Shown here in pieces: positions 34,878-54,535 of a stretch of 64,000 nucleotides of DNA. This DNA comes from Rhodobacteraceae bacterium IMCC1335 (GTDB lineage: Bacteria > Pseudomonadota > Alphaproteobacteria > Rhodobacterales > Rhodobacteraceae): contig CP046864.1 in the NCBI GenBank assembly GCA_039640495.1, positions 2,108,001 to 2,172,000 on the forward strand, given 5' to 3'. The translations under genes and the position numbers were made by a program. The notes beneath the pieces were generated by a model. It made no database searches. It was not told the DNA's origin and saw only the letters and a list, made by a program, of their open reading frames with translations. Each line of letters opens with the position of its first letter. Positions within the stretch are counted from its first letter, which is position 1.

Positions 34878-34950
34878 CAAATATCTCTCCTTCCGCGTCA
34901 CCTATGCAGCCCATGGCTCAAGCTAGACCCTATTCAAAAAATAGGATTGT

Positions 34951-36553: not shown

Positions 36554-38206
36554 TTATTGGCATGGCGCAAGCTCTGTATTTTGCCACAGATCCGCATCAA
36601 TCCGCTGCAAGGGCGCGCGACCCAAAATATCATCGCTGAGTTTTTCGGCCAGCATGATGGTGGGAGCATTTGTATTCCCGTTGGTCACAAACGGCATGAT
36701 AGAGGCATCGACCACGCGCAGCCCAGACACACCATGCACCCGTCCGCGCGCATCCACTACGGCCCCCTTATCCGTCGCCGCCCCCATCCGGGCGGTGCAG
36801 GACAGATGCCATTGTGTTGTGGCATGAGATGTCAGGACCTGATCGAGTTCCTCGTCTGAATGGATGTCAGCGCCAGGAAAAATTTCGTCCCCTTTGAGAT
36901 CGGAAAAGGCAGGTTGCTCAACAAGTTCTCGGACCAAGCGGATGCCTTTGCGCATAAGATCGCGGTCGCGCGCGTCTTTGAGATAGTTCACCAAGATGCG
37001 CGGCGGATCGCTAGGATCAGCAGAACGCAGCTCAATTGTGCCGCGGCTATGCGCACGCATCAATCCAACATGAATTTGAAATGCATGCTCTTGCAGCGGC
37101 GCCCATGTTCTATCATCCACCGCAATCGGCGAAATGATGATCTGCAAATCCGGATAATCCACGCCCGGGCCAGAGCGGACACAGCCCAGACCTTCAAACA
37201 GATTCGAGGCGACGATACCGCCACCTGTCATCATCCATTGAATCCCTGCCCCTAGTTTGGCCAGCGGCTTTGTCTTGGGCCAAAACGAAACAGGCCGCTT
37301 GCATTTATATTTCAGCACGAAATCAGGATGGTCATTCAGGTTTTGACCAACACCTGGAAGATCACACAGAACGTCCAGCCCCATATCTCGAAGATGCCCA
37401 GCCGGACCGACACCTGAGAGCATGAGAATCTGCGGCGAGCCAACCGCGCCCGCGCTCAGAATAATCTCTTTTCGAACATGGGCGCTGCGCAAGATGCCAG
37501 CGCTGTTTTTATACGTCACCGCCACGGCTTTGTTACCCTCAAAGGTAATTTTTTGCACCAGTGCCCGCGTCAGTATGGTCAGGTTGGATCGCTTACGGAC
37601 CGGGTCAAGATACGCCCTCGCGGTGCTCCAGCGCTCGCCCTTAAAAACTGTGCGATCCGAGACTCCGAAACCCTCCTGACAATAGCCGCTCACATCGTTT
37701 GTTAGGGGGTATCCAGCCTCTTGGCCCGCTTTGATAAAGGCCAGCGTGATTGGATCCTTAGGCTCCGCGCGGTGCACGTGAAGCGGACCACCAACGCCGC
37801 GGAACTCATCCCGGCCGCCGCCATAGGTTTCCATACGTTTGAAATATGGCAGCACATCTGCATATCCCCAACCGGGGCATCCGGCCTGCTGCCACCCGTC
37901 ATAATCCAACGCGTGCCCGCGGATGAACACCATGCCGTTGATCGATGACGATCCACCGATTGTTTTGCCGCGGTCATGCTGAATTACGCGGCCATCCAAC
38001 CCGGGCTCAGGCTCGCCTTGAAATGCCCAATTATGCCTTGTGCTGGTCAGGTTTGACAAGACGGCCGCCGGCATTTTGAGCGAGAGTGCCCCCGTATCAG
38101 GACCGGCCTCAATCAACAAAACCCGATTGCGCACATCACTGCTGAGGTGGTTGGCCAAAACACAGCCAGCCGATCCTGCCCCTATAATGATGTAATCGAA
38201 TTCCAT
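36554..38206 (-). CDS. GMC-family FAD oxidoreductase (choline dehydrogenase-like)
   Basis: 550 residues. FAD-binding IIGAGSAGCVLANHLS, the GMC signature GKTIGGSSSINGMVFIRGHALDYD, EIILSAGAVGSPQILMLSGVGP, catalytic C-terminal WHLSCTARMG (His) and NTNAPTIMLAEKLSD (Asn). The family oxidises alcohols such as choline, polyethylene glycol or glucose-type alcohols. The BetI-like regulator and betaine-type transporter nearby suggest a choline-like alcohol, but BetA itself is more conserved than can be claimed here. First gene of the - strand operon, divergent from the enolase-like gene. Confidence 0.87.
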   Translation of the reverse strand: MEFDYIIIGAGSAGCVLANHLSSDVRNRVLLIEAGPDTGALSLKMPAAVLSNLTSTRHNWAFQGEPEPGLDGRVIQHDRGKTIGGSSSINGMVFIRGHALDYDGWQQAGCPGWGYADVLPYFKRMETYGGGRDEFRGVGGPLHVHRAEPKDPITLAFIKAGQEAGYPLTNDVSGYCQEGFGVSDRTVFKGERWSTARAYLDPVRKRSNLTILTRALVQKITFEGNKAVAVTYKNSAGILRSAHVRKEIILSAGAVGSPQILMLSGVGPAGHLRDMGLDVLCDLPGVGQNLNDHPDFVLKYKCKRPVSFWPKTKPLAKLGAGIQWMMTGGGIVASNLFEGLGCVRSGPGVDYPDLQIIISPIAVDDRTWAPLQEHAFQIHVGLMRAHSRGTIELRSADPSDPPRILVNYLKDARDRDLMRKGIRLVRELVEQPAFSDLKGDEIFPGADIHSDEELDQVLTSHATTQWHLSCTARMGAATDKGAVVDARGRVHGVSGLRVVDASIMPFVTNGNTNAPTIMLAEKLSDDILGRAPLQRIDADLWQNTELAPCQ

Positions 38207-40476: not shown

Positions 40477-41160
40477 CTAAACTTGCAGGAATTTTTCTTT
40501 AAAAGCCTTGGAACCCAGCGCAATATCTGCAATTGCCTCGATCTTTTTGCGAGCCTCTTTATGCTTGGCGGCGCTTATTTCATCAAAAGGCAACAGTTTT
40601 TCGATGGCAAATTGCATTTCCGATATGGCCATATTGGTCTCGACCGGGTGCGGCAACAGGCCGGCGCGCACCCAAATGCCATCAATATGAACCCCCAAGT
40701 GGCGCGCCACATGCTCAGCCTCCTGTTCAGGTAAAAAATGCTTCAACTCGTGCATCAGGTTGGTTCTGATGCGTTCATTATTAGCAATCTGAACGCGCTG
40801 GCATTCTTTATTATGGGGCACTTCAGAAATCAGAGAGACCCAAGCTTGGCACACTTGACGATTAAAAATCGTTTCAAAAAAATTGGCGACGATAATCGCC
40901 CAGAGCCGTTCATAGGGGGTAACTGCATAGCGGTATAATTCGACAACGGATCCGCTGAGCAACGTGTTCGAACTTCGAAACACGGCCTCAAGCAAAGCAC
41001 TTTTATCTTTAAAATGGTGCAGCACCACACCTTTTGAAACGCCGGCAATATCGCCAACTTTTTCCAATGTGGTTTTTCGCAAACCGTATCGAATTACCGC
41101 CTCAAAGGCCGCACGAGACAGTTCGACGCGTCTAATGGCTCGGATGGAACTGGTTCGCAT
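40477..41160 (-). CDS. BetI-like TetR-family regulator
   Basis: 227 residues. Helix-turn-helix: LSRAAFEAVIRYGLRKTTLEKVGDIAGVSKGVVLHHFKDKSALLEAVFR. The C-terminal domain has the BetI look: AWVSLISEVPHNKECQRVQIANNERIRTNLMHELKHFLPEQEAEHVARHLGVHIDGIWVRAGL, parallel to BetI's KAWLAFW... and LIDGLWLRAAL as I recall them. BetI represses choline-betaine genes and responds to choline. It is divergent from the binding-protein gene, with a 170-base promoter gap holding a candidate operator. It most probably controls the surrounding operons (inference). Confidence 0.85.
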   Translation of the reverse strand: MRTSSIRAIRRVELSRAAFEAVIRYGLRKTTLEKVGDIAGVSKGVVLHHFKDKSALLEAVFRSSNTLLSGSVVELYRYAVTPYERLWAIIVANFFETIFNRQVCQAWVSLISEVPHNKECQRVQIANNERIRTNLMHELKHFLPEQEAEHVARHLGVHIDGIWVRAGLLPHPVETNMAISEMQFAIEKLLPFDEISAAKHKEARKKIEAIADIALGSKAFKEKFLQV

Positions 41161-41330: not shown

Positions 41331-42281
41331 ATGCATCAGATTAGTAAAGTAACCAGCATTCTTGGCTTTGCTATGCTTGGATTGGTTGGCAGCGCCGCTG
41401 CCGATAGCAGCGATCCAATTAAGATCGCGGTCAATGAATGGACAGGACAGCACGTATCGGCACATATCGCGGGCAGCGTTTTGCAAGCCGCGGGATATAA
41501 TGTCGAATATGTCACCGCCGGCGCGGTGCCGCAATTTGCGGCCATTGCGCAGGGAAATCTACATCTGCAGCCCGAAACATGGGGCAATAACGTGGGAGAC
41601 ATTTACCCCAACTCTGTTGCCAATGGTGATATCGTTGTCTTGGGATCAACAGGCCTTGAGCCAACGGAAAGCTGGATGTACCCAAGCTACATGAACGCGC
41701 AATGCCCCGGATTGCCGGATGTGAACGCATTGATCGCCTGCTCGCAGCTTTTTGCCGCGGCTGAAACGTTTCCCAAGGGGCGTTTAATCACCTATCCCGC
41801 CGATTGGGGCACACGCTCCAAGGATTTGGTTAACAGCGCAGGCTTGCCATTTGAACCGATTGCCGGCGGATCGGAAGGCGCTATGATTGCCGAAATGCAG
41901 GCTGCCTATAAGACACAATCCCCCATGTTGGTGATGTTTTGGGAGCCGCATTGGGTTCACTCAGAGATGGATTTCGACTGGGTTCAATTCCCCGGCTATA
42001 CCGAGGATTGCGACACCAACCCCGAACCCGGCATTTACCCCGACAAAACAGGCGATTGCGGCTTCAAACAAGCAAATATTTCCAAAATTGTGTCGCGTGA
42101 TTTTGAAACCAACTGGCCCGGTGCCTTCAAAATCATGAAAGCCTTGTCCATCGATAATGCTATGCAGAATTCGCTTCTTTTAGAGATCGATTTCAACAAA
42201 CGTGAGCTTGAAGAAGTGATCGCAGAGTGGATGCAGAATAATGAATCTACTTGGAAGCCTTGGGTTGCCGCAGGCAGTTGA
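41331..42281 (+). CDS. proX: Betaine-type ABC transporter substrate-binding protein
   Basis: 316 residues with a signal peptide (SILGFAMLGLVGSAAADSS), so periplasmic. OpuAC/ProX-type fold: KIAVNEWTGQHVSAHIAGSVLQAAGYNVEYV, LQPETWGNN, WMYPSYM, ITYPADWGTRSKD, GGSEGAMIAEMQAAY and MLVMFWEPHWVHSEM. Several tryptophans could form the aromatic cage that holds a quaternary ammonium or sulfonium head group. Two or more cysteines (QCPGL, IACSQ, EDCDTN, GDCGF) may pair. GGGAG precedes the ATG. First gene of the nine-gene operon. Substrate may be glycine betaine, choline, carnitine, DMSP or TMAO-like; not resolved. Confidence 0.9.
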   Translation: MHQISKVTSILGFAMLGLVGSAAADSSDPIKIAVNEWTGQHVSAHIAGSVLQAAGYNVEYVTAGAVPQFAAIAQGNLHLQPETWGNNVGDIYPNSVANGDIVVLGSTGLEPTESWMYPSYMNAQCPGLPDVNALIACSQLFAAAETFPKGRLITYPADWGTRSKDLVNSAGLPFEPIAGGSEGAMIAEMQAAYKTQSPMLVMFWEPHWVHSEMDFDWVQFPGYTEDCDTNPEPGIYPDKTGDCGFKQANISKIVSRDFETNWPGAFKIMKALSIDNAMQNSLLLEIDFNKRELEEVIAEWMQNNESTWKPWVAAGS

Positions 42282-42303
42282 TCCTGCGCGCTGCTAAACA
42301 CTC

Positions 42304-42335
42304 AAACGGGGCGGTCTCATTCCACCGCCCCGTTT
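42304..42335 (+). terminator. Strong hairpin after the binding-protein gene
   Basis: AAACGGGGCGGT and ACCGCCCCGTTT are perfect 12-base arms around an eight-base loop, 22 bases after the stop codon. There is no T run after it, so it is probably a 3' stabiliser or attenuator that keeps binding-protein mRNA more abundant than the rest. Confidence 0.65.
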
Positions 42336-42405
42336 CGCGACTAACTCTAACAAAATTTCTGAAATAATTTGCTGGTCATGTTGAAACAGGCCAAAGGCGC
42401 TGAAA

Positions 42406-42460
42406 TACTCGGGCTTATATGTAATTACTCGGGCGTATATGTAATACTCGGGCGTATATA
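42406..42460 (+). repeat. Three tandem 20-base repeats before the ATPase gene
   Basis: TACTCGGGCTTATATGTAAT is repeated at 42406, 42426 and 42445, the second and third copies with G for T at position 10 and the last cut short at TATATA. It runs into a G8 tract and then the ATPase start, so it may affect expression of the downstream genes. Confidence 0.8.
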
Positions 42461-42475
42461 AAGGGGGGGGCTAGC

Positions 42476-43564
42476 ATGACACAGAAGAGCGAAGCCAGCG
42501 TTAAAATCGCCTGTCGCAATGTCTGGAAAGTATACGGCAATGATCCCAATGCTTATTTTGATCGCCCCACCGGCCCCGTCAGCGATAACATCCCAGACTT
42601 GGTTGATAAGATAAGGCAGAACGGCGCAATCCCAGCGGCTGCAGATGTTTCTTTCGAAGTTAATGAGGGTGAGATTTTTGTTATTATGGGCCTGTCCGGT
42701 TCCGGTAAGTCAACAATGGTGCGTTGCCTGTCACGCCTTGTCGAGCCGACTCGGGGGGAAATTTTACTCGATGGTGAAGATCTGCTTAAGAAAAACAAGT
42801 CTGAGCTGATCGATATCCGCCGTCACAAAATGGGTATGGTTTTTCAAAGCTTTGGGTTGCTTCCGCATCTATCTGTGGCCGAAAACATCTCATTTCCTCT
42901 CAGCCTGCAAGGCCTATCGGCCAAAGAACAACGCGAAAAAACAGCGCGGGTGATTGAACTGGTTGGGTTGGAAGGGCGCGAAAAAAGTTTTCCGCGGCAA
43001 CTCTCAGGGGGACAGCAACAACGGGTGGGAATTGCGCGTTCCTTGGCAGTAGAGCCAGAACTGTGGTTTCTGGACGAGCCATTTTCCGCGCTTGACCCGT
43101 TAATCCGACGCCAGATGCAAGATGAGTTTCTGCGCATCCAATCAACGTTAAAAAAATCCATCGTCTTCATCACGCATGATTTTCTAGAGGCGCTGCGCAT
43201 TGCTGACCGAATGATGATCATGCGCGATGGCATGGTGGTACAGATCGGCACACCCGCTGAATTGATAATCAATCCGGCAGATGACTACGTTGCTGAATTC
43301 ACCAGTGATGTCCCTTTGACGCGTGTGTTGTTGGCGCGCGATGTGATCGACGATACCGCAACGGTACAAGCGGGCATGTTTGAAATGCAAGAAACGGTTT
43401 GCGTTGAAGATCTGCTTTGCCATCTTGCAATTCATCGCGACGGTGTTGCGGTTGTCCAGAATGGGAACCCCATCGGCGTTGTTACCCCGACATCGGTGGT
43501 ATGTGCCTTGTCGAAGGGTTCAGAAGTTAAAGCTGATGCCACACGGCAGCAGGAGACTGGATGA
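42476..43564 (+). CDS. proV: Betaine-type ABC transporter ATP-binding protein
   Basis: 362 residues. Walker A GLSGSGKSTMVRCL, Q-loop MVFQSFGLLPH, ABC signature LSGGQQQRVGIARSLA, Walker B LWFLDEPFSALDPL, and switch His in VFITHDFLEAL. The N-terminal ProV extension (YGNDPNAYFDRPTGP) precedes, and a reduced CBS-like region (VEDLLCHLAIHRDGVAVVQNGNPIGVVTPTSV) follows. A CBS pair in OpuAA/ProV senses ionic strength; here only part is visible, so osmotic control may be reduced (inference). An A/G-rich run AAGGGGGGGG serves as ribosome site. Overlaps the permease gene by four bases. Confidence 0.9.
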   Translation: MTQKSEASVKIACRNVWKVYGNDPNAYFDRPTGPVSDNIPDLVDKIRQNGAIPAAADVSFEVNEGEIFVIMGLSGSGKSTMVRCLSRLVEPTRGEILLDGEDLLKKNKSELIDIRRHKMGMVFQSFGLLPHLSVAENISFPLSLQGLSAKEQREKTARVIELVGLEGREKSFPRQLSGGQQQRVGIARSLAVEPELWFLDEPFSALDPLIRRQMQDEFLRIQSTLKKSIVFITHDFLEALRIADRMMIMRDGMVVQIGTPAELIINPADDYVAEFTSDVPLTRVLLARDVIDDTATVQAGMFEMQETVCVEDLLCHLAIHRDGVAVVQNGNPIGVVTPTSVVCALSKGSEVKADATRQQETG

Positions 43565-45678
43565 TGCGCGCCAACACGGATGCCGTTGAACACTCTCAAA
43601 GGCCGGCAGGGCGTTTTTCCTTGGTCCTTTGGGTAACTATACTTGCTGTGACCTTAGGCTTGCTGGCCCTGCGCGACGTGGCCCCTTGGCTGATCATCTT
43701 TCCCGACGAATGGGTTATGCCGATTGTATCTGTTTTAAACACCATCATGACCTGGGTCGTAGAGGCAACAGGAGCATTTTTTCGCGCGGTTTCTACGGTT
43801 TTTGACGTGCCGATGGATGCGGTTCGCAGCCTTTTAACCTGGCTGCCCTGGTCCGTCTCAGTGTTTATATTGGTGAGTATCGCCTACGCGGCATCGGGGT
43901 GGAAGCTTGCCGTTTTTACAGCTCTTTCTGTCAGTTACATGCTGGTTGTGGGGCTTTGGATTGAATCGATGAATTCGCTCGCTTTGGTGGTGGTATCGGT
44001 GCCGCTGGCCGTGTTGATTGGATTTGCCATCGGAACCGCAGGGTTTTTCTATCCGCGCGCGGAACGTGCCATCATGGTCACCTTAGATGCGCTGCAAACT
44101 ATTCCAGCCTTTGCCTATTTGCTGCCTATCCTGTTGCTATTTGGTTTTGGCGTAGTGGTGGGGCTGATTGCGAGCATTTTATATGCCTTCCCTCCGATGG
44201 TACGCAACACGCTGCTTGGTCTGCGCCGCGTTGCGCCGGAAGTGATCGAATCTGGTTTGATGTCGGGGGCCACCGCGACCCAATTGTTTTTTCGGGTGCG
44301 CGTGCCAAGCGCAGCAAGACAAATTATGCTAGGGATTAACCAGACCACGATGGCGGCGTTTTCAATGGTGATCATTGCTTCAATTATTGGTGGAGCGTCC
44401 GATATTGGCTGGGAAGTTTTATCAGCGATGCGCAAGGCACGGTTTGGCGAAAGCTTGGTGGCAGGGGTGGTGATTGCCTTGATGGCCATGGTTATGGATC
44501 GTATAACGGCGGGGTTTGCAAACCGAAAACCAAGGGAGACGCATCTTGCTTCCGAACCGTTTCACAGGCGTCATCAATTTACTTTAACCGCCGTTACGGG
44601 CGTCTTATGTCTTTATTTTGCCAGCCTTATTTTGCCACCACTGCAAACCTATCCAAAGGCTTGGGTCTACGACCCGTCTGGCCCTTTGAACAGCGCGATC
44701 GATTATATCATCATTGAATATGCAGCTTGGATTGCGCTGATTAAAAAATGGGCGTTCTTTTACCTAATGCTTCCAATCAAAATGGGATTAGAACAGGTGA
44801 TTTCACCCTTTTCATGGGGGTTCACATTTACCCCCGCGTTGAAGGCTGGTTATGCTTTGACGGCACTGGCACTGATGGCACTTGCAGGGCTGCGCGGGCG
44901 GCAGAGACTTGCGATGGTGATTGGCTTGCTGGCGATTGTGCTGTTTTTTGGATTGACCCGCATGCCATGGCCAGCGCTCTGGTTGATTATGGCCTTTGTT
45001 TGCTGGCAGTTATCTGGCCCAAAGCTGGCTTTCTCCGTTTTAATCGGGCTCGCCTACCTGTTACTGTCAGGCATCTGGCCGCAGACCTTGCTGAGTGTTT
45101 ATCTCTGCGGCATTGGCGTCGTTTTATCATTCACCCTCGGCTCTGCACTTGGCATTTTAGCCTCTGAATTCAAACCTGTTTCGCGATTTTTACAGCCCAT
45201 TAATGACACGCTGCAAACCATGCCACTCTTTGTGTTGCTGATCCCTTTTGTAATGATCTTCAAAATTGGCGAATTCACAGCCCTCCTGGCTGTGATAGCT
45301 TATGCCATGGTCCCTGCAATCCGCTATTCTGAGCATGGATTGCGAAACGTACCACATGAGGTGATTGAAGCAGCCACTTGTATGGGCTGCACCCGTTGGC
45401 AATTATTGTGGCGGGTAAAGATTCCCTTGGCCCTTCCTGAAATGATGCTGGGCCTTAACCAAACAATCATGTTCGGGATTTCTATGCTGGTTATCGCGGC
45501 CTTAGTGGGCACCAGCGGCCTAGGCCAACAAGTCTATATCGGACTGGGAGATGGTGATTTTGGCGTTGGTATGACCGCGGGGATCGGCATGGCGGTTATC
45601 GCAATCATCGCAGACCGAATGACCGCTGCCTGGAGCGTGAAGCTGCAGGAACGCTACACATCAAACCCAGCCGGCTGA
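43561..45678 (+). CDS. proW: Double permease of the betaine-type ABC transporter
   Basis: 705 residues, about twice the usual ProW length, with two binding-protein-dependent permease domains fused head to tail. Each has the EAA loop that contacts the ATPase: EVIESGLMSGATATQLFFRV and EVIEAATCMGCTRWQLLWRV, each followed by MLGINQTTMAAFSMVIIAS or MMLGLNQTIMFGISMLVIAA. About a dozen transmembrane stretches. A single protein therefore supplies both halves of the channel. Overlaps the ATPase gene by four bases and is followed after eleven bases by the molybdoenzyme gene. Confidence 0.9.
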   Translation: MMRANTDAVEHSQRPAGRFSLVLWVTILAVTLGLLALRDVAPWLIIFPDEWVMPIVSVLNTIMTWVVEATGAFFRAVSTVFDVPMDAVRSLLTWLPWSVSVFILVSIAYAASGWKLAVFTALSVSYMLVVGLWIESMNSLALVVVSVPLAVLIGFAIGTAGFFYPRAERAIMVTLDALQTIPAFAYLLPILLLFGFGVVVGLIASILYAFPPMVRNTLLGLRRVAPEVIESGLMSGATATQLFFRVRVPSAARQIMLGINQTTMAAFSMVIIASIIGGASDIGWEVLSAMRKARFGESLVAGVVIALMAMVMDRITAGFANRKPRETHLASEPFHRRHQFTLTAVTGVLCLYFASLILPPLQTYPKAWVYDPSGPLNSAIDYIIIEYAAWIALIKKWAFFYLMLPIKMGLEQVISPFSWGFTFTPALKAGYALTALALMALAGLRGRQRLAMVIGLLAIVLFFGLTRMPWPALWLIMAFVCWQLSGPKLAFSVLIGLAYLLLSGIWPQTLLSVYLCGIGVVLSFTLGSALGILASEFKPVSRFLQPINDTLQTMPLFVLLIPFVMIFKIGEFTALLAVIAYAMVPAIRYSEHGLRNVPHEVIEAATCMGCTRWQLLWRVKIPLALPEMMLGLNQTIMFGISMLVIAALVGTSGLGQQVYIGLGDGDFGVGMTAGIGMAVIAIIADRMTAAWSVKLQERYTSNPAG

Positions 45679-45689
45679 AGGTTAGCGCT

Positions 45690-48020
45690 ATGGTAAAAAC
45701 ACCTGCCCTGCCCCTGACAAGTACGCATTGGGGCACATATCGCGCCAAGGTCGCAAATGGCTGCGTGCAAGCGCTGCTACCCTTCGAGCATGACCAAGAC
45801 CCCTCTCCCATTGGGCCAGGCATTTTGGATGTGCAACATGGGCCAATGCGCATAGATATGCCCATGATACGCAAAAGCTGGTTAGAGGGCAAAGCTGGCC
45901 AAAGCACCGAGTTGCGCGGGCGCGAGCCGTTCGTCGCCGTAGGCTGGGCGGAAGCGAATCGTTTGGTTGCGGATGAGCTCACGCGTGTGCGCCGCGATTT
46001 TGGCAATCAGGCGATCTATGGCGGCTCTTACGGTTGGGCCAGCGCCGGCCGGTTTCACCACGCCCAAAGTCAGCTTAAGCGGTTTTTGAACTGCATCGGT
46101 GGCTTTACCAGTTCAAAATTCACCTATAGTTTTGCCGCTGCCGAGGCTATGGTGCCGCATATCTTGGGCAGCTTTCGCGCTTATCTGGACACCTGCACAA
46201 GTTGGGAGCTGATCCGGGACCACACGCAGCTTTTTGTCTGTTTCGGAGGCGTGCCGCTGAAAAACGGTCAGATCAGTCAGGGCGGCACCGGATGTCATAT
46301 TCAGCGCGACGCCCTGTTGGCCGCAAGCGGCGCGGGAATCGAGATTATCAATGTCAGCCCGATAAAATCTGACATGCTTGAGCAGGTTGGCGCTGAATGG
46401 CTGCCCCTGCGCCCAAATACGGATGTGGCGATGATGCTGGGGCTAGCGCATACTTTGCAGGTCGAAGGGCTTACAGATCAGGCGTTTTTGGATCGTTATA
46501 CACAGGGATTTGAAGCCTTCCTGCCTTATTTGATGGGCGAGCAAGACGGCATCGCAAAAACCGCAGATTGGGCAGCCGAGATTTGTGAAATTCCTGCAGA
46601 GACGATCCGCAGATTGGCCCGCCGAATGGCCGCCCAGCGCACGATGATTTCACTCAGTTGGTCGCTCACGCGTCAAGACCATGGTGAGCAACCCTTCTGG
46701 ATGGGTATTACATTGGCCTCAATGCTAGGCCAGATCGGTCAGCTCGGTGGCGGGTTTGGATTTGGTTACAGCGCGATGAATTACATCGGAGGCAAATTCA
46801 AAAGCATTTCCGGAGCATCTCTTCCACAGGGAGAAAATCCGGTTGAAAACTTTATTCCGGTGGCCCGCATCACTGACATGCTGCTTAATCCTGGTCAGCC
46901 CTTCGATTTTGATGGGGGACAATATACATATCCTGATATTAAACTGGTATGGTGGGCCGGAGGCAATCCTTTTCACCATCATCAAGACCTGAACCTGATG
47001 ATGCAGGCTTGGCAACGGCCTGACACGATCATCGTCAATGAATGGTGCTGGAATTCACTTGCCAAACACGCTGATATCGTACTGCCCTGCACCACCCCGA
47101 TGGAACGTGCTGATATCGCGATAACCCCGCGCGACCCCTATGTGATTGCCATGGCGAAACTGACAGAACCCTTTGCGCAGGCCCGCGACGATTATGAGAT
47201 TTTTGCGGGCATTGCTGGGGCCATGGATGTTGCAGAGGCTTTCACCGAAGGGCTTAGCGCTGCAGATTGGCAAAGGCAGATATACGATCAAACAATCAAT
47301 CGAGCCCATAAAGACGGCATCGAGATGCCCGAGTATGACCGTTTTCTTGACAAAGGCTGGTTTAAACTTGCGGAGCCTGCGCGTCCCACCGTTATGTTAG
47401 AAGATTTTCGCGCCGACCCTGCAGCAAATCCGCTGAGCACACCTAGTGGTAGAATTGAAATCTTTTCACAAACGGTTGCAGATTTTGGCTACACCGATTG
47501 CCCCGGGCATCCGCTTTGGCAGGAACCCTATGAATGGTTGGGCAATGGAGCTGACTATCCGCTTCATCTGATATCAAATCAGCCAAAGGAAAAATTACAC
47601 TCTCAGCTCGATCACGGCTCTGTCAGCAAGGCCAGTAAAGTTGCAGGGCGCGAACCATTGCACATGCATCCTGACGATGCCCTTATGCGCGGGCTCAAAA
47701 CCGGGGATCTTGTGCGTGCGTTTAACGATCGCGGTGCCTGCCTAGCTGGCATTGTGGTTGATCCGGCCATGCGCCCTGCTGTCGTTCAGATGAGCACCGG
47801 GGCCTGGTATGATCCCGATGAAACCGGTTTGTGCAAACATGGCAATCCCAACGTGCTGACCCGTGACAAGGGCACATCAAAACTGGGGCAAGGCCCAAGC
47901 GCGCATTCCTGCCTGATCGAGGTTGAATTGTTCACAGGCCCAGCGCCATCCGTCACCGCACATGCGCCACCCACCATCCTACGCCCCTGCCCAGATAACG
48001 ATCTAATGGAAAAGACATGA
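45690..48020 (+). CDS. Molybdopterin oxidoreductase of the BisC/TorA (DMSO reductase) family
   Basis: 776 residues, cytoplasmic: no Tat signal and no N-terminal iron-sulfur cysteines. Domain-II motif GGSYGWASAGRFHHAQSQ has S113, which would bind molybdenum as in BisC, TorA and DMSO reductase; further family features are GHP-like WPL regions, GGNPFHHHQDLN, WCWNSLAKHADIVLPCTTPMERADI and STGAWYDP near the C-terminus. Known relatives reduce biotin S-oxide, methionine S-oxide, TMAO or DMSO. The operon suggests an N- or S-oxide osmolyte or intermediate (inference). Overlaps the next gene by four bases. No chaperone or cytochrome partner is nearby. Confidence 0.88.
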   Translation: MVKTPALPLTSTHWGTYRAKVANGCVQALLPFEHDQDPSPIGPGILDVQHGPMRIDMPMIRKSWLEGKAGQSTELRGREPFVAVGWAEANRLVADELTRVRRDFGNQAIYGGSYGWASAGRFHHAQSQLKRFLNCIGGFTSSKFTYSFAAAEAMVPHILGSFRAYLDTCTSWELIRDHTQLFVCFGGVPLKNGQISQGGTGCHIQRDALLAASGAGIEIINVSPIKSDMLEQVGAEWLPLRPNTDVAMMLGLAHTLQVEGLTDQAFLDRYTQGFEAFLPYLMGEQDGIAKTADWAAEICEIPAETIRRLARRMAAQRTMISLSWSLTRQDHGEQPFWMGITLASMLGQIGQLGGGFGFGYSAMNYIGGKFKSISGASLPQGENPVENFIPVARITDMLLNPGQPFDFDGGQYTYPDIKLVWWAGGNPFHHHQDLNLMMQAWQRPDTIIVNEWCWNSLAKHADIVLPCTTPMERADIAITPRDPYVIAMAKLTEPFAQARDDYEIFAGIAGAMDVAEAFTEGLSAADWQRQIYDQTINRAHKDGIEMPEYDRFLDKGWFKLAEPARPTVMLEDFRADPAANPLSTPSGRIEIFSQTVADFGYTDCPGHPLWQEPYEWLGNGADYPLHLISNQPKEKLHSQLDHGSVSKASKVAGREPLHMHPDDALMRGLKTGDLVRAFNDRGACLAGIVVDPAMRPAVVQMSTGAWYDPDETGLCKHGNPNVLTRDKGTSKLGQGPSAHSCLIEVELFTGPAPSVTAHAPPTILRPCPDNDLMEKT

Positions 48021-49198
48021 GCAATCTTCAAGAAGCCTCTGATTTACATAAAAGCGTCGCTATAAGCGCCCGTCGTTTTGAGGAATCTCCCTTTATCGAA
48101 CGCACACGCCGACCTGAGATGGTGAAAGGTGTTTATGCAGGGCGGTTCTTCACAATTTATATGGGTGAAGATTATCTCGATAAATATTGGTGTCTGCGTC
48201 AAAAAGCGCTGATCTTTGACGTCCCTGAAAAGCCGATCGAAATCTGCGGGCCGGATGCCGTTGCGTTTCTAGAAAAAGTATTTGCCCGAAAGATTGCAAC
48301 AATGACCGAAGGCCGCGGATATTACGCGATTGCCTGCACCCCGCAAGGCGGCATCTTTATGGATGGGGTGATGTTTCGGTTGGCGGAAGACCGTTTTTGG
48401 TATGTGCAGGCCGATGGCCCAATGGAAGCCTGGTTGATGGCGCATTCTGAGGGCTTTGACGTCACGATATGCGACCCGCACAGTCGCGTATTGCAAATTC
48501 AAGGGCCCGCCTCGATGGCGATCATGACCTCTGCCTCAAACGGGGTGATTGACGATACAATGAAATATTTTCGTTCCGGATATTATGACTTGGGCGGTCA
48601 AACGCTCTATGTTTCGCGCACCGGATTTACCAATGAGCTCGGTTATGAAATTTACAGCAACGGGGCGCAGACGGATCATCTGGCGCTTTGGGATCATCTG
48701 ATGGATTGCGGCGCGCCGCATGGAATGGAGTTTTCATCCACCCACGCCTTGACCATCCGCAGGATCGAAGGCGGTATTCTTGGAAATGGCACCGATATTA
48801 CGCCGGATATGACGCCTTTCGAGGCTGGCTTGGCACCTTTCGTTAACATGGAAAAAGGCGATTTTATCGGTCGGACGGCGCTTTTGAAGAAGGACAGGCA
48901 ATGCTGTCTCTTTGGGCTGACATGCAGAACGGAAACCCCGGCCGCAGGCGCACGGGTCTTCGAGGGTGGCACTGAGGTCGGGCGTATTACCGCAGGGATC
49001 CCCTCCCCAACGCTGGGCCTTGGCATCGGCTATGTGCATTTTAACGCACCGGGCGATTGGGTCGGCCGTACCCTCGCGATGCGCCTGCCTAACGGCAGCC
49101 TGCACGATGCTCAAATCGTTCAACCACCGTTTTTTGACCTAGATAAAAAAATTGTACGCGGGTTGGATCGTTCTATCCCACAACGCCCAGCGAATTGA
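48017..49198 (+). CDS. DmdA/GcvT-family aminomethyltransferase-like protein, copy 2
   Basis: 393 residues, paralog of the gene at 34951: FDVPEKPIEICGPDAVAFLEKV, CTPQGGIFMDGVMFRLAEDRFWYV, VLQIQGPASM, VSRTGFTNELGYEIYS, IRRIEGGILGNGTDITPDMTPFEAGL. The folate-dependent methyl transfer fold is clear; in known relatives substrates are glycine-derived aminomethyl groups (GcvT), DMSP (DmdA), or dimethylglycine/sarcosine partners. Coupled by ATGA to the molybdoenzyme and three bases before the alcohol dehydrogenase, so it is probably a demethylation step in the same pathway. No folate C1 genes are present nearby. Confidence 0.8.
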   Translation: MSNLQEASDLHKSVAISARRFEESPFIERTRRPEMVKGVYAGRFFTIYMGEDYLDKYWCLRQKALIFDVPEKPIEICGPDAVAFLEKVFARKIATMTEGRGYYAIACTPQGGIFMDGVMFRLAEDRFWYVQADGPMEAWLMAHSEGFDVTICDPHSRVLQIQGPASMAIMTSASNGVIDDTMKYFRSGYYDLGGQTLYVSRTGFTNELGYEIYSNGAQTDHLALWDHLMDCGAPHGMEFSSTHALTIRRIEGGILGNGTDITPDMTPFEAGLAPFVNMEKGDFIGRTALLKKDRQCCLFGLTCRTETPAAGARVFEGGTEVGRITAGIPSPTLGLGIGYVHFNAPGDWVGRTLAMRLPNGSLHDAQIVQPPFFDLDKKIVRGLDRSIPQRPAN

Positions 49199-49201
49199 TC
49201 A

Positions 49202-50395
49202 ATGAAAGCACTAGATAGCATGACTGACGCTGACATTTTGGAACCACAGGATTGGACCTTCCCAATACCCATCGCATATGGGCCGGGCCGTCTTGGGGAA
49301 ATTGGGCAACATTGCGCGGTGCTGGGGCTGAGAAATCCCTTGATCGTCACCGATAAAGGCAGCCGAAATTTGCCGTTCATTTCACGGCTGCAAAATTCTT
49401 TGTCTGACGCAGGCCTGTCCGCCGGCTTATTTTCGGAAATATCGCCAAATCCGCGTGATGATGAAATTGGCATTGGGCGCGATAAATTTCGCTTGGGCAA
49501 TCACGATGCGATCATTGCGATTGGAGGCGGCAGTGCGATGGATGGCGGTAAGGCCATCTGCCTTACGGCCAGAAATGAAATAGATCTTTGGGAGTTTGAA
49601 TGGGAAGCCGAGCCGGCAGATATTGGCCCTGATCAAGCGTTTCCAACGCTGATCACCATTCCTACCACGGCCGGAACTGGCGCCGAAACTGAAAGTACAG
49701 CGATGGTCACCCATACGGGTAAAGGGATGAAATTCTGCATCTACCATCCGCAATTGAAGCCATCTTTGGCGCTGCTTGACCCAGAACTGACCGTTGGCCT
49801 GCCCGCCAATCTGACCGCCTGGACCGGCGCGGATGCCCTGGTGCATGCAATTGAGGCCTTTTGCGTGCCAGGTTTTCATCCGCTATGTGACGGCCTTGCG
49901 CTGGAAGGGCTGGCTCTGGTTGTGAAATGGTTGCCAGTGGCAGTACGCGCGCCGGAGAACATGGCCGCGCGTGCCGGCATGCTTGTCGGCTCTTGCCTTG
50001 CCGGGATCGCGTTCCAAAAAGGCTTGGGGCATGTGCACGCCATCTCGCATATGGTGGGCGCTGAGTTTAATACACAGCACGGGCTCACCAACGCAATCAT
50101 ACTGCCAGTTATTCTACGGTTCAACTTGCCGGGCATGGAGCACAAGGTAAAGCGCATGGCAGATGCCATGGGCCTCACAGATTCGTCCGTTGATGCCTTC
50201 ATTGTAGAGGTGGAGCGCCTTCTTGACGACATCAATATCCCACGATCTCTAAGTGAAATCGGAGTGCCCGCAGATTGTGCCGGTCGCATTGCCGAAAAAG
50301 CAATGCAAGATAGTGCGGCGGGTACAAACCCCAGAACCACGAGCCCCGCCGAAATGGAGCTTTTGGTAGAAAGCGCTTTGGCTAAAGCACGCTAA
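49202..50395 (+). CDS. Iron-containing alcohol dehydrogenase
   Basis: 397 residues. NAD-binding DAIIAIGGGSAMDGGKAI, TIPTTAGTGAETESTAM, and the metal ligands in TGADALVHAIEAF (Asp, His), GLGHVHAISHMVG and FNTQHGLTNAI. The fold includes alcohol, lactaldehyde, 4-hydroxybutyrate and maleylacetate enzymes; which applies is unknown. Start may be 49202 or an ATG at 49220; neither has a good ribosome site, consistent with coupling to the preceding gene three bases away. Probably oxidises or forms an alcohol that the aldehyde dehydrogenase downstream carries on (inference). Confidence 0.9.
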   Translation: MKALDSMTDADILEPQDWTFPIPIAYGPGRLGEIGQHCAVLGLRNPLIVTDKGSRNLPFISRLQNSLSDAGLSAGLFSEISPNPRDDEIGIGRDKFRLGNHDAIIAIGGGSAMDGGKAICLTARNEIDLWEFEWEAEPADIGPDQAFPTLITIPTTAGTGAETESTAMVTHTGKGMKFCIYHPQLKPSLALLDPELTVGLPANLTAWTGADALVHAIEAFCVPGFHPLCDGLALEGLALVVKWLPVAVRAPENMAARAGMLVGSCLAGIAFQKGLGHVHAISHMVGAEFNTQHGLTNAIILPVILRFNLPGMEHKVKRMADAMGLTDSSVDAFIVEVERLLDDINIPRSLSEIGVPADCAGRIAEKAMQDSAAGTNPRTTSPAEMELLVESALAKAR

Positions 50396-50414
50396 GGGAA
50401 GGAAAAAACCAATA

Positions 50415-50969
50415 ATGTACAGCGCATTCCAAAAGCACGATGTTGAAACAGCCCCAGAGAAAAGCAAACCACTCTTGCGGCAATTGCTTGAGCATTCGGG
50501 GCCAAATGGGTTTTACGCCGTAACCGCAGAATCTCCAGAAACGCTAACAGCATATGCTGCGCTCCATAAAGCGTTCATGGCATCAAGCTTTACGGATGAA
50601 GAGAAAACTGTGGTTTGGCAGAGCATCAATGTCGAAAATCAATGTCACTTCTGCGTTCCAGCGCATACTTACATGGCCAAGGCTATGAGGATTGATAAGG
50701 CGGTATCAAATGCTCTGCGCGACGAAACAGCTCTTCCCACGGCCCGGCTCGAAGCTTTACGCGATTTTACCTTGCTGTTGTTGCGTAATCATGGGCACGC
50801 AAGTGACGCTGAAATCTCAAAATTCCTAAGCGCCGGTTTCACTCATCAGAATATGTTAGAGGTCGTTCTGGGCTTGGCTCAAAAAACGATCAGCAACTAC
50901 GTCAACCATTTGGCGCGTACACCCGTTGATAAGCAATATGAACACTACGCCTGGAAAAAAGTGGAATAA
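50415..50969 (+). CDS. AhpD/carboxymuconolactone decarboxylase-family protein
   Basis: 184 residues, mostly helical, with the AhpD-type CxxC motif in VENQCHFCVPAHTYMAK (C77 and C80) and a conserved His in the same helix. Known members are peroxidase partners (AhpD) or lactone decarboxylases. The active CxxC suggests thiol redox or peroxidase activity. Here it sits between an alcohol and an aldehyde dehydrogenase in a catabolic operon, so it may protect those enzymes or act on an intermediate (inference). 19 bases after the alcohol dehydrogenase, six before the aldehyde dehydrogenase. Confidence 0.85.
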   Translation: MYSAFQKHDVETAPEKSKPLLRQLLEHSGPNGFYAVTAESPETLTAYAALHKAFMASSFTDEEKTVVWQSINVENQCHFCVPAHTYMAKAMRIDKAVSNALRDETALPTARLEALRDFTLLLLRNHGHASDAEISKFLSAGFTHQNMLEVVLGLAQKTISNYVNHLARTPVDKQYEHYAWKKVE

Positions 50970-50975
50970 AATCAA

Positions 50976-52403
50976 ATGAAGAACCTTTCAAACTTTTATA
51001 TCTCTGGGCAGTGGGTTAACCCAATCTCAGAGGCCTCAATGCCAGTTCTGAACCCTGCCACGGAAGAACAAATTGGAACGGTCGCTTTGGGCAATGCAGC
51101 GGATGTGGACAGCGCAGTCGCCGCTGCTAAATCTGCCTTTGATAGCTTTTCTTTGACCAGCAAAGCAGATCGTTTGGCGCTTCTTAAAGCGTTGAAAGCT
51201 GTCACTGAAAAGAGGTTCGAGGATCTTGCACAGGCGATGCGTATAGAGATGGGCGCCCCGATTAGTATGGCACGCAACGCGCAGGCCGATGCCGCGATTG
51301 GCCATCTTATTGGCTTCATAGAGGCGCTTGAAACGCTTGAGGAACGCTGCATTCTATCCAATAGTGATATTTTGATACGCGAACCGATTGGCGTTTGTGG
51401 GCTGATTACGCCTTGGAATTGGCCGATGAATCAGATCGCGCTTAAGGTTATTCCGGCGCTGGCCACCGGCTGTACCTGTATTTTAAAACCCTCCGAGCAT
51501 ACGCCGATTTCCGCAATGATCTATGCGGAAATTATTCATGAGGCCGGCTATCCAGCTGGAGTGTTTAACCTGATCAATGGCCTTGGAGACACGGTTGGTT
51601 CGGCGCTGTCGCGTCACCGCGATGTACAGATGATATCGTTTACCGGTTCAACGCGTGCTGGGGCAGCGGTCACTCGGGATGCGGCCGAAACCGTCAAACG
51701 GGTGACGCTTGAGCTGGGTGGTAAATCACCCAATCTCGTCTTCGCGGATTGCGATCTTGCAGAGCGCGTCACCGCCTCGGTCGGTGAATGTATGTTTAAC
51801 ACCGGACAATCTTGCGATGCTCCAACGCGGCTTCTGGTCGAGCGCGCCTGTTATGACGAGGTGCTCAAAATCGCGAAGCAGGCGGCCGAGGCAACGATCG
51901 TTGGGGATCCGGCCAAGGCGGGTGATCATATCGGCCCTCTCTTTGACCGCCTTCAATATGAACGTGTGCAGGCAATGATCCATAAGGGGATTGCCGAAGG
52001 GGCAACCTTATTGGCAGGCGGTCACGGCAAACCCGAAGGCTGTGAAATTGGTTGGTACGTGAAGCCAACGATCTTTGCAGATGTCTCCAACGATATGGCG
52101 ATTGCGCAGGAAGAAATATTTGGTCCCGTTTTGGTGATCATTCCCTTTGAAAATGAAGATGAGGCGATAGCGATTGCCAATGATACGCCCTACGGGCTGG
52201 CCGCTTATGTGCAAACTGGCAGCGCGGCTCGTGCAGAGCGTGTTTCTGCGCGCCTGCGCGTTGGCGCCATTCACGTCAACGGGGGGGGCTTCAATTACGG
52301 ATCCCCCTTTGGCGGCTACAAGCAATCGGGCAATGGCCGCGAAGGCGGATTGATGGGGCTAGAAGATTATCTTGAAACAAAAACGCTGCATGGCATCACC
52401 TGA
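50976..52403 (+). CDS. NAD(P)-dependent aldehyde dehydrogenase
   Basis: 475 residues, class 3-like aldehyde dehydrogenase. Catalytic Cys C280 in FNTGQSCDAPTR, general base E246 in VTLELGGKSPN, N-terminal PWNWPMNQ (the oxyanion Asn) and KPSEHTPISA. FGPVLVIIPF and GYKQSGNGREGG close the fold. It oxidises an aldehyde to a carboxylate; betaine aldehyde, malonate semialdehyde or an aldehyde from the alcohol dehydrogenase are options. CoA-dependent malonate-semialdehyde enzymes have a different Cys neighbourhood, so a simple acid product is more likely (inference). Confidence 0.92.
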   Translation: MKNLSNFYISGQWVNPISEASMPVLNPATEEQIGTVALGNAADVDSAVAAAKSAFDSFSLTSKADRLALLKALKAVTEKRFEDLAQAMRIEMGAPISMARNAQADAAIGHLIGFIEALETLEERCILSNSDILIREPIGVCGLITPWNWPMNQIALKVIPALATGCTCILKPSEHTPISAMIYAEIIHEAGYPAGVFNLINGLGDTVGSALSRHRDVQMISFTGSTRAGAAVTRDAAETVKRVTLELGGKSPNLVFADCDLAERVTASVGECMFNTGQSCDAPTRLLVERACYDEVLKIAKQAAEATIVGDPAKAGDHIGPLFDRLQYERVQAMIHKGIAEGATLLAGGHGKPEGCEIGWYVKPTIFADVSNDMAIAQEEIFGPVLVIIPFENEDEAIAIANDTPYGLAAYVQTGSAARAERVSARLRVGAIHVNGGGFNYGSPFGGYKQSGNGREGGLMGLEDYLETKTLHGIT

Positions 52404-52415
52404 AAGGCATCTGAC

Positions 52416-53273
52416 ATGACAAACCGAATTATTCGCCCGCGCCGCAGTTTCATTTTCACACCAGGCTTGCGCCCTGACATGTTCCCAAAAGCGCTGGCCT
52501 CGGGTGCAGATATGGTCTGCGTTGAGCTTGAAGACGGGATTGCCCCGAAAGACAAAGCCGAAGCGCGGCAAAAAGCTTTGAAGCTGTTTGAAACCCCGCA
52601 AGCCGATGACGGTGTCGAGCGGATCCTACGCATCAATTCGATGCGCGAACGCTTTGGGATCGAGGATGTGAATGCCGTCTTAAACAGCAAGACCCCGCCA
52701 CCTGCCTTGATGATGCCCAAGCTACGTACGCCAGACGAAGTGGTGATTTTGGATCAATTGTTAACAGAAGCGGGCCATGCAACGCGGTTGCACGTTATTA
52801 TTGAGACCAATGAGGGGCTTGAAGCCGCGTTTGAGATTGCCAAATGTTCGGAGCGCATTGATGCGATGTTTTTCGGCGGCGTCGATATGGCGGCTGAACT
52901 GCGATGCCAAAATACATTTGACGCGTTGATCTATGCACGCTCGCGCGTGGTGCATGCCTCTGCTGCCGCCGGATTAGACGTGATTGATGTGCCGTTTCTT
53001 GATCTCGATGACCCTGAAGGGATGCGCGTTGAGGCCGAAAAGGTTCGCGACTTGGGGTTTTCTGGTAAGGGCTCGGTGCATCCAAAACAGATTGCTGCGC
53101 TGAATGAAGTATTCACACCGAGCGACGCGCAAATTGGTCGCGCCCGTCGCATTATCAACGAATTTGAAAAAGCGGATACTGGTCTGATTGTGATCGACGG
53201 CAAATTAATAGAAAAACCGGTTATGCGTGAGATGTACCGGATCGCAGCAATTGCGGATAGACTGGACCGTTAA
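52416..53273 (+). CDS. HpcH/HpaI (CitE-like) lyase
   Basis: 285 residues of the CitE/malyl-CoA lyase fold: RPRRSFIFTPGLRPDMFPKAL, CVELEDGIAPKDKAEAR, VIIETNEGLEAAFEIAKC, FFGGVDMAAELR, and GSVHPKQIAALNEVF. Acidic residues for magnesium (E in ELEDG, D in GGVDM) are present. Relatives cleave citryl-, malyl- or citramalyl-CoA or act as thioesterases. Last gene of the nine-gene operon, 12 bases after the aldehyde dehydrogenase. A recombinase remnant starts six bases after its stop in the same frame. Confidence 0.9.
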   Translation: MTNRIIRPRRSFIFTPGLRPDMFPKALASGADMVCVELEDGIAPKDKAEARQKALKLFETPQADDGVERILRINSMRERFGIEDVNAVLNSKTPPPALMMPKLRTPDEVVILDQLLTEAGHATRLHVIIETNEGLEAAFEIAKCSERIDAMFFGGVDMAAELRCQNTFDALIYARSRVVHASAAAGLDVIDVPFLDLDDPEGMRVEAEKVRDLGFSGKGSVHPKQIAALNEVFTPSDAQIGRARRIINEFEKADTGLIVIDGKLIEKPVMREMYRIAAIADRLDR

Positions 53274-54445: not shown

Positions 54446-54535
54446 TGGCGGACAGACAGGGATTCGAACCCTGGAGGCGGTCTCCCGCCTACACACTTTC
54501 CAGGCGTGCGCCTTCGACCACTCGGCCACCTGTCC
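54446..54535 (-). tRNA. tRNA-Ser (anticodon GGA)
   Basis: 90 bases with encoded CCA: acceptor GGACAGG/CTGTCCG region, anticodon arm CACGCCTGGAAAGTGTG with GGA, the long variable arm typical of serine tRNAs (TAGGCGGGAGACCGCCTC), and T arm GGTTCGAATCC. Its 3' end faces the mobile-DNA scar, the expected layout for integration next to a tRNA. Confidence 0.93.

What the first reader, a model, noticed from the sequence alone, without database searches (positions are those of the whole stretch)
41331..53273. Nine-gene operon joining a betaine-type ABC transporter to a BisC-like molybdoenzyme and a DmdA/GcvT-like protein
Tight spacing or overlap through all nine genes indicates one transcript: import, a cytoplasmic N/S-oxide reductase-like enzyme, folate-type demethylase, iron alcohol dehydrogenase, AhpD-like protein, aldehyde dehydrogenase and CitE-like lyase. 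I know no described pathway with this set. A coherent guess is that an oxidised methylated osmolyte (for example an N-oxide or DMSP S-oxide type) is imported, reduced, demethylated and its carbon skeleton oxidised to a CoA ester for cleavage. The order of steps and the substrate are inference; TMAO, carnitine-, choline- and DMSP-like substrates are alternatives.
Basis: partly seen in the sequence, partly recalled or inferred. Interest (0 to 1): 0.85.

Follow-up and report, generated by a model that had tools for sequence, protein, structure and literature searches.

The report
Marine sulfur-osmolyte demethylation operon, substrate unknown
A set of bacterial genes, shared in part by several groups of ocean bacteria, appears to import a methylated (probably sulfur-containing) algal compound, repair its oxidised form, strip off a methyl group and use the rest as food; the exact compound is not known.

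Summary
The nine genes are at the stated coordinates, tightly packed except for a 194-bp gap after the first. The locus extends leftwards (BetI-like regulator, BetA-like GMC dehydrogenase, VOC protein, second GcvT-like protein, esterase). The exact nine-gene set was seen here only in the window's genus. Its core, a DMSO-reductase-family enzyme (BISC) directly upstream of a GcvT-like protein (GCVT1), recurs in 43 of 60 named loci (roseobacters, SAR11-type, SAR92-type) beside three kinds of transporter; the four SAR116-titled loci have GCVT1 but no BISC upstream. GCVT1 is neither DmdA nor Tdm by NCBIfam; it lies in the clade sister to DmdA. BISC keeps Tyr114, Trp116 and Ser147 in 45 of 45 copies, as S-oxide reductases do and TorA does not. 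Canonical DmdA, Tdm and BetA/BetB lie elsewhere in the genome, so DMSP, TMAO and choline are unlikely main targets. Best reading: import and folate-linked demethylation of a dimethylsulfonium osmolyte other than DMSP, with cytoplasmic sulfoxide reduction and oxidation of the carbon skeleton. Sulfur in the substrate is inference (about 0.6); its identity is open (dimethylsulfonioacetate, gonyol, a sulfonium alcohol, DMSOP). A new variant of a known kind, worth testing.

The parts
41331..42281 (+). OpuAC-type substrate-binding protein, nearest solved relative TmoX (4xz6)
   Evidence: PF04069 159 bits; phmmer 187 bits to 4xz6; four-Trp box and Glu kept, two Phe replaced
42476..43564 (+). ABC ATPase, ProV/ChoV-like
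   Evidence: TIGR01186 336.6 bits, cut-off 326.6
43561..45678 (+). Fused double permease, ProW/ChoW-like
   Evidence: two BPD_transp_1 stretches; TIGR03416 354 bits, cut-off 363
45690..48020 (+). BISC: Mo S/N-oxide reductase of the DMSO/biotin-sulfoxide reductase family, cytoplasmic (no signal peptide by reading)
   Evidence: TIGR00509 950.7 bits; 684 bits to DMSO reductase 1dms; Tyr114, Trp116, Ser147 in register and 45 of 45 conserved
48017..49198 (+). GCVT1: folate-dependent demethylase-like protein in the clade sister to DmdA
   Evidence: GCV_T; DmdA 161.9 bits against cut-off 410 and Tdm 189.4 against 1100; tree
49202..50395 (+). Iron-type alcohol dehydrogenase
   Evidence: PF25137/PF00465; 252 bits to methanol dehydrogenase 8zrl
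50415..50969 (+). AhpD/peroxidase-related protein with CxxCxxxH by reading
   Evidence: TIGR01926 43.6 bits, below its cut-off 81.8; no Pfam match at E 0.001
50976..52403 (+). Aldehyde dehydrogenase, BADH/HpaE-like
   Evidence: TIGR02299 430 bits and TIGR01804 419 bits, both below cut-off; 3i44 521 bits
52416..53273 (+). CitE-like acyl-CoA lyase, RipC/malyl-CoA-lyase type
   Evidence: NF038242 254.7 bits, cut-off 375; 3qll 193 bits, motifs around RIN, IIE and D-M-A aligned
40477..41160 (-). Divergent BetI-like TetR repressor
   Evidence: TIGR03384 160.6 bits (cut-off 201.3) and NF001978 140.4 (cut-off 118); BetI-like gene in 8 of 59 loci
36554..38206 (-). GMC dehydrogenase, BetA-like
   Evidence: NF002550 721 bits (cut-off 605) and TIGR01810 650 bits (cut-off 732.1); GMC of at least 40% identity in 10 of 59 loci
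36116..36520 (-). VOC/glyoxalase-like protein, 134 aa, between GMC and GcvT2
   Evidence: frame read; orthologue 89.6% identical in G002; Pfam Glyoxalase for the L081 relative
34951..36123 (-). GcvT2: second demethylase-like protein, 52% identical to GCVT1; start set by 390-aa orthologues
   Evidence: orthologues; separate clade
33972..34901 (-). Hormone-sensitive-lipase-type esterase
   Evidence: NF058649 207.6 bits, cut-off 380; relatives in 4 of 59 loci

Best explanation
A catabolic operon for a dimethylsulfonium osmolyte other than DMSP, and its S-oxidised forms. The TmoX-like ABC transporter imports the onium compound. GCVT1 moves one S-methyl group to tetrahydrofolate, as DmdA does for DMSP, leaving a methylthio compound. 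BISC, a cytoplasmic sulfoxide reductase, returns S-oxidised substrate or methylthio product to the reduced form. GMC and/or Fe-ADH plus ALDH oxidise an alcohol end to a carboxylate. The CitE-like enzyme joins the remaining carbon to central metabolism as a CoA ester, and the methylthio group leaves as methanethiol, burned by an SBP56-type oxidase that in two relatives lies in the same gene run. Shown by computation: gene content, conserved BISC-GCVT1 coupling, GCVT1's clade, S-oxide-type active-site residues, failure of the DmdA and Tdm models. Inferred: sulfur substrate, step order, every chemical conversion. The substrate is not identified; dimethylsulfonioacetate, gonyol and a sulfonium analogue of choline are the leading candidates.
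For: GCVT1, GcvT2, four GcvTs of related (type II) clusters and three others form a clade (99/98) sister to DmdA (100/98), apart from Tdm, GcvT and DMGDH/SoxA domains. BISC is immediately upstream of GCVT1 in 43 of 60 loci and 18 of 31 groups. The pair persists beside three transporter kinds: TmoX-like ABC, a divergent ABC in SAR11-type loci, and an SSS symporter in SAR92-type loci. 17 GCVT1-adjacent BISCs form one clade (98/98), and other BISC lineages also sit near GcvT-clade genes: 6 label changes, at least 3 forced by starred branches. BISC Tyr114/Trp116/Ser147 in 45 of 45; PMC5122715 (passages) reports Tyr114 and Trp116 in all S-oxide reductases it aligned and Tyr114 absent from TorA. SBP56, the methanethiol-oxidase family, overlaps CitE in L055 and follows it by 3 bp in L110, and occurs in 6 of 6 GCVT1 genomes (in G016 as two pieces) against 13 of 55 others (4 of 4 genera, hypergeometric 0.005; post hoc). 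Canonical DmdA x2, Tdm, BetA and BetB elsewhere in the genome. SBP pocket uniform in 17 of 17 TmoX-like rows (position 106 V/I/L, 220 M) and distinct from TmoX and DmpX. PMC7221440 (passages) states that certain bacteria release MeSH from DMSA and gonyol, that DmdA does not recognise DMSA, and that an unrecognised demethylation/demethiolation pathway is suggested.
Against: No substrate was tested. 17 of 60 loci lack BISC immediately upstream (5 of these have a BISC-type gene downstream), so the reductase is not obligatory; the four SAR116-titled loci and the Bugula symbiont are among the 17. One of the type II clusters (L053) shows no BISC in the stretch read. SBP56 is beside only 2 of 60 loci and scores 153 bits against the MtoX cut-off of 650. 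The regulator, GMC and ALDH look choline-like, which also fits a nitrogen substrate. SAR11-type loci keep a different SBP pocket (24 of 24 with Ser at the Glu position), and 16 of 59 loci have a BKACE-like gene and 2 a 3-hydroxyacyl-CoA-dehydrogenase-family gene nearby, which could mean carnitine-type chemistry. L082 has a GbcA-like Rieske gene next to GCVT1. DMSO-reductase-type enzymes are known for sulfoxides, not sulfoxonium ions (recalled), so a DMSOP-like step is chemically uncertain.
Confidence: 0.5

Rival explanations
1. Nitrogen version: a choline-, carnitine- or N-oxide-type quaternary amine is imported, its N-oxide reduced by BISC, and N-methyl groups moved to folate by GCVT1 and GcvT2 in turn.
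For: BetI-like regulator and BetA-like GMC, BADH-like ALDH, TmoX-like binding protein with the four-Trp box and Glu, BKACE-like neighbours in 16 of 59 loci, mostly SAR11-type, GbcA-like Rieske gene in L082, two GcvT proteins in the window.
Against: GCVT1 is sister to DmdA, not to Tdm or DMGDH domains; BISC has the S-oxide-type Tyr114; Tdm, BetA and BetB are elsewhere in the genome; direct THF demethylation of a quaternary amine by a stand-alone GcvT fold is not known to me (recalled).
Confidence: 0.2
2. DMSOP salvage: BISC reduces dimethylsulfoxonium propionate to DMSP and GCVT1 is an additional DMSP demethylase.
For: [quoted passage not shown] Co-occurring reductase and DmdA-sister demethylase.
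Against: GCVT1 is far below the DmdA cut-off, and two real DmdA are in the genome, one of them 13 kb downstream with an AcuI-like neighbour (AcuI by reading), so a third DMSP demethylase seems redundant. The binding pocket differs from DmpX. GMC, Fe-ADH, ALDH and CitE have no clear role. Sulfoxonium reduction by this enzyme family is unproven (recalled).
Confidence: 0.1
3. BISC is only a general sulfoxide-repair enzyme (biotin or methionine sulfoxide) that shares the operon, and has no role in the pathway.
For: BISC homologues without any GcvT-clade gene in the stretch read exist (L046, L047, L051, L052; L114); some GCVT1 loci lack BISC.
Against: Repeated pairing of BISC lineages with GcvT-clade genes and persistence of the pair across transporter swaps.
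Confidence: 0.1
4. O-demethylation of a methoxy compound, as LigM/DesA do, with ALDH and lyase for an aromatic or sugar acid.
For: The GcvT fold includes LigM/DesA; the P. inhibens cluster has TRAP, CoA ligase, crotonase and ALDH, a ferulate-like set.
Against: LigM and DesA scores are low (63 and 59 bits); the importer is onium-type; the clade is sister to DmdA (LigM/DesA were not in the tree).
Confidence: 0.05

Closest known systems
DMSP demethylation pathway (DmdA-DmdB-DmdC-DmdD/AcuH)
   Same: Stand-alone GcvT-fold demethylase in a sister clade; probable methylthio product; methanethiol-type outcome suggested.
   Different: GCVT1 fails the DmdA model; no DmdBCD in the operon; adds a Mo sulfoxide reductase, GMC/Fe-ADH, ALDH and CitE; own transporter.
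TMAO pathway (TmoXWV, Tdm)
   Same: TmoX is the nearest solved binding protein, with its four-Trp box and Glu kept.
   Different: No Tdm N-terminal domain; two pocket Phe replaced; Tdm present elsewhere in the genome; BISC has Tyr114, unlike TorA.
Choline bet operon (betI, betA, betB)
   Same: BetI-like, BetA-like and BADH-like proteins.
   Different: TIGR betA, BADH and BetI cut-offs not reached; canonical BetA/BetB elsewhere; BISC and GcvT proteins added.
DMSO/biotin/methionine sulfoxide reductases (DorA, BisC, MtsZ)
   Same: BISC fold, Ser147, Tyr114 and Trp116.
   Different: In a catabolic operon with a demethylase and importer; no electron-transfer partner among the nine genes.

Membership tests
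DmdA (DMSP demethylase) | NCBIfam NF009133 score at or above 410 | tested here: not met
   161.9 bits; the genome's own DmdAs score 672 and 550
DmdA (DMSP demethylase) | falls inside the DmdA clade | tested here: not met
   sister clade, both supported
DmdA (DMSP demethylase) | THF-dependent demethylation of DMSP | not testable with these tools
   needs assay; GcvT-type Asp116, Glu207 and Arg249 are 58 of 58 conserved; their roles are recalled
Tdm (TMAO demethylase) | two-domain protein scoring at or above 1100 | tested here: not met
   189.4 bits, GcvT domain only
DMSO/BisC-type S/N-oxide reductase | bisC_fam TIGR00509 at or above 1017.55 | tested here: inconclusive
   950.7 bits over nearly the full length, best family by far, but below the cut-off
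DMSO/BisC-type S/N-oxide reductase | Ser Mo ligand and S-oxide residues Tyr114, Trp116 | tested here: met
   Tyr114/Trp116 meaning from PMC5122715 passages, though that paper calls the Mo ligand an aspartate; that Ser147 is the ligand is recalled
TmoX (TMAO-binding protein) | W55, W102, F106, E131, W177, F220, W222 | tested here: not met
   five of seven kept; F106 to V/I/L and F220 to M in 17 of 17 rows (residues from PMC8918994 passages)
Choline dehydrogenase BetA (GMC gene) | TIGR01810 at or above 732.1 | tested here: not met
   650.4 bits; broader NF002550 met, 721 against 605
BetI | TIGR03384 at or above 201.3 | tested here: not met
   160.6 bits; NF001978 met, 140.4 against 118
Methanethiol oxidase MtoX (SBP56 of L055) | NF052453 at or above 650 | tested here: not met
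   153 bits; Pfam SBP56 684.9 bits met

The most novel reading that the evidence does not exclude
The locus is the missing gene set for marine dimethylsulfonium osmolytes other than DMSP (such as dimethylsulfonioacetate, gonyol or sulfonium alcohols): a second family of sulfonium demethylases, sister to DmdA, found in SAR11-type, SAR116, SAR92-type and roseobacter genomes, and in most of those loci (not SAR116) working with a cytoplasmic molybdenum sulfoxide reductase that lets the cell use S-oxidised forms.
Probability: 0.45. Interest if true: 0.78.

Novelty: new variant of a known kind. Interest (0 to 1): 0.62.

Why it matters
Some marine bacteria release methanethiol from dimethylsulfonioacetate and gonyol, a so far unrecognised pathway is suspected, and DmdA does not accept DMSA (PMC7221440 passages). 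A DmdA-sister demethylase with its own importer, in widespread ocean groups (1,720 non-redundant proteins at E <= 1e-100, near relatives such as GcvT2 presumably included), gives that question a concrete candidate. If the sulfoxide reductase belongs to the pathway, it would also tie oxidised organosulfur back to the demethylation route, which matters for budgets of methanethiol and DMS.

Tried and rejected
TMAO, choline and DMSP as main substrates: set aside because Tdm, BetA/BetB and DmdA are elsewhere in the same genome. Malonyl-CoA synthetase and decarboxylase as pathway members: adjacent in the genus, but one search found no MCD-like gene of at least 40% identity in 59 loci and MatB-like genes in 15, all SAR11-type, so left out. 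BISC as an obligatory partner of GCVT1: rejected, since GCVT1 occurs without it. Literature for an existing description: searches returned 0 papers; one search returned 6, of which I saw passages of one (PMC3160333). Those passages describe other SAR11 aminomethyltransferases, among them SAR11_1303 beside OpuA-type transport genes, postulated to serve glycine betaine metabolism; whether it is related to GCVT1 was not tested. No molybdoenzyme-demethylase pair appears in the passages seen. One search (DmdA structure terms) returned 0. Searches gave listings; from them I saw passages of PMC10686828, PMC8918994, PMC10030565, PMC7221440 and PMC10746254 only. The library holds open-licence papers only, so absence there is weak. 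A viral-contig scan found nothing. Promoter/terminator scan uninformative. One search's BISC tree held two antisense artefact rows (L015, L027), dropped. The ORF caller picked antisense ORFs in L059 and L085; tblastn replaced it, but merged GCVT1 with GcvT2 in L081, L084 and L089, for which one search is used. One working note gave 20 TmoX-like pocket rows; the recount is 17.
Full report
Observation. The nine ORFs are there, on one strand, with gaps of 194, -4, 11, -4, 3, 19, 6 and 12 bp. Family scans support the names given. Divergently or beyond it lie a BetI-like repressor, an EamA-type and an enolase-family gene, and on the minus strand a BetA-like GMC dehydrogenase, a 134-aa VOC protein, a second GcvT-like protein, an esterase, malonyl-CoA decarboxylase and malonyl-CoA synthetase (MCD and EamA by reading). 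In the two other species of the genus held, G001 and G002, the nine genes and this left part keep their order (in G001 the left part was read as far as MCD). G001 is very likely Rhodobacteraceae bacterium SB2, because its contig C20 and record LGRT01000026.1 have the same length and both match at 92%.

Conservation. Titles include Pelagibacteraceae (SAR11), SAR116, SAR92, Rhodobacteraceae, a Bugula symbiont and Granulosicoccaceae; many are only 'Alphaproteobacteria', and I call those SAR11-type where the gene order matches the Pelagibacteraceae loci. BISC lies immediately upstream of GCVT1 in 42 of the 59 that one search scored, plus L084, so 43 of 60. The 17 without it include the four SAR116-titled loci (L063, L104, L105, L107) and the Bugula symbiont (L070). 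Five of the 17 (L074, L076, L079, L104, L105) carry a different BISC-type gene downstream. After single-linkage clustering at 85% identity, 57 loci plus the window give 31 groups; 18 have a member with BISC upstream. Of the 59 loci, Fe-ADH-type genes are in 35, GMC in 10, ALDH in 10, CitE in 8, BetI in 8, AhpD in 2 and SBP56 in 2; many loci end at contig edges and 24 are SAR11-type, so these are descriptive. GMC and Fe-ADH occur together in 2 of the 59 (L063, L072), although the window has both. The pair stays while the importer changes: TmoX-like ABC, a divergent ABC with fused permease in SAR11-type loci, or an SSS symporter in three SAR92-type loci.

What GCVT1 is. It scores 161.9 against DmdA (cut-off 410) and 189.4 against Tdm (cut-off 1100). 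In a 30-row tree GCVT1 (11 rows), GcvT2 (3), type II GcvTs (4) and three others form a clade (99/98) sister to DmdA and near-DmdA (4 rows, 100/98); Tdm, GcvT, SoxA and DMGDH domains fall outside (100/99). The root is a midpoint and several outgroup branches are long. Asp116, Glu207 and Arg249 are 58 of 58 conserved.

What BISC is. It aligns over its whole length with DMSO reductase 1dms, with Tyr114, Trp116 and Ser147 in register, and these are 45 of 45 conserved among locus BISC-type proteins longer than 600 aa. PMC5122715 (passages) says all S-oxide reductases in its alignment carry Tyr114 and Trp116 and that E. coli TorA lacks Tyr114. No signal peptide is seen, so it should be cytoplasmic. 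In a 35-row tree, 17 GCVT1-adjacent BISCs form one clade (98/98); the L083, L104, L076/L079, P. inhibens and L048 BISCs lie elsewhere, among BISCs labelled as lacking a GcvT partner; 6 label changes are needed, at least 3 forced by starred branches. That label rests on about 9 kb either side for four of the twelve rows (L046, L047, L052; L114) and for L026 through its wider stretch L051, and on 1.5-kb flanks for the other seven, whose genomes gave no GCVT1-like match at E <= 1e-80. Repeated pairing argues for a functional link.

Type II clusters. A mobilizable Phaeobacter inhibens plasmid has GcvT (38% to GCVT1), ALDH, an alpha/beta hydrolase, SDR, TRAP transporter, crotonase, AMP ligase and BISC. 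L048 has GcvT, an acyl-CoA synthetase-like gene, a thiolase-like gene (both by reading) and BISC, with a second GcvT about 7 kb further on in L130. L053 has the GcvT, ligase and ALDH but no BISC in the stretch read. Ligase plus crotonase resembles the DmdB and DmdD steps (pathway from PMC10746254 passages). This is an analogy.

Binding protein. Relative to TmoX (residues from PMC8918994 passages), W55, W102, E131, W177 and W222 are kept; F106 is V/I/L and F220 is M in 17 of 17 TmoX-like rows, window included. DmpX has L and Y there. SAR11-type SBPs (24 of 24) have A, S and Y at positions 106, 131 and 220. So the importer suits a small onium or oxide compound but is neither TmoX nor DmpX by pocket, and SAR11-type loci may take a different compound.

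Why sulfur. (1) DmdA-sister demethylase; (2) S-oxide-type reductase; (3) SBP56 overlapping or directly following CitE in L055 and L110, and SBP56 in 6 of 6 genomes with a GCVT1 of at least 67% identity (in G016 as two pieces) against 13 of 55 others, a post hoc comparison; by genus 4 of 4 (0.005). Against this: choline-like regulator and dehydrogenases, BKACE-like neighbours in 16 of 59 loci, one GbcA-like Rieske neighbour, and SBP56 scoring 153 against the MtoX cut-off of 650. The genome's own DmdA (672 and 550 bits), Tdm (1186), BetA (809) and BetB (783) pass their cut-offs, so those three substrates are already served; one DmdA lies 13 kb downstream.

Proposed working. Import; GCVT1 transfers S-methyl to THF; BISC reduces S-oxidised substrate or methylthio product; GMC/Fe-ADH and ALDH oxidise an alcohol end; CitE, whose RIN Arg, Glu and Asp motifs align with malyl-CoA lyase (roles recalled), makes or breaks a CoA ester with glyoxylate or pyruvate; methanethiol is released. 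VOC and GcvT2 may serve a later step. All conversions are inferred. Dimethylsulfonioacetate and gonyol are attractive because PMC7221440 (passages) reports methanethiol from them in some bacteria and no DMSA recognition by DmdA. Sulfonium analogues of choline fit the BetA-, BetI- and BADH-like genes; these compounds are recalled, not documented here.

Verdict. A real, conserved, probably organosulfur demethylation module; new variant of a known kind; substrate open. I found no description in the open-licence library with the searches named in Tried and rejected.

Noticed in passing
window 53508-53930: Remnant resembling IS6-family transposases just after CitE, followed by a tRNA-Ser gene at 54446-54535; a possible insertion boundary.
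   Followed up: partly
L117 (NZ_CP010709.1 12000-38200) and L115: GcvT + BISC + TRAP + CoA ligase + crotonase cluster on a mobilizable Phaeobacter inhibens plasmid, with a close copy on a conjugative Tritonibacter plasmid.
   Followed up: partly
L104 210-1628: SelA gene divergent from GCVT1 in a SAR116-titled genome, with similar-sized neighbours in L105 and L107; reason unknown.
   Followed up: no
L102 3264-5741: 825-aa DUF305 protein upstream of the SSS symporter, BISC and GCVT1 in a SAR92-titled genome; genes of similar size at that place in L103 and L112.
   Followed up: no
G000 (whole genome): A search with GCVT1 gave 17 GcvT-family matches in the genome, which looks like a large set of C1-transfer proteins (no comparison made).
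   Followed up: partly
L057 7805-8248 and L083 2092-2499: Proteins that read like glutathione-dependent formaldehyde-activating enzymes near the locus (reading only; no NCBIfam match at E 1e-30 for the L057 one).
   Followed up: partly
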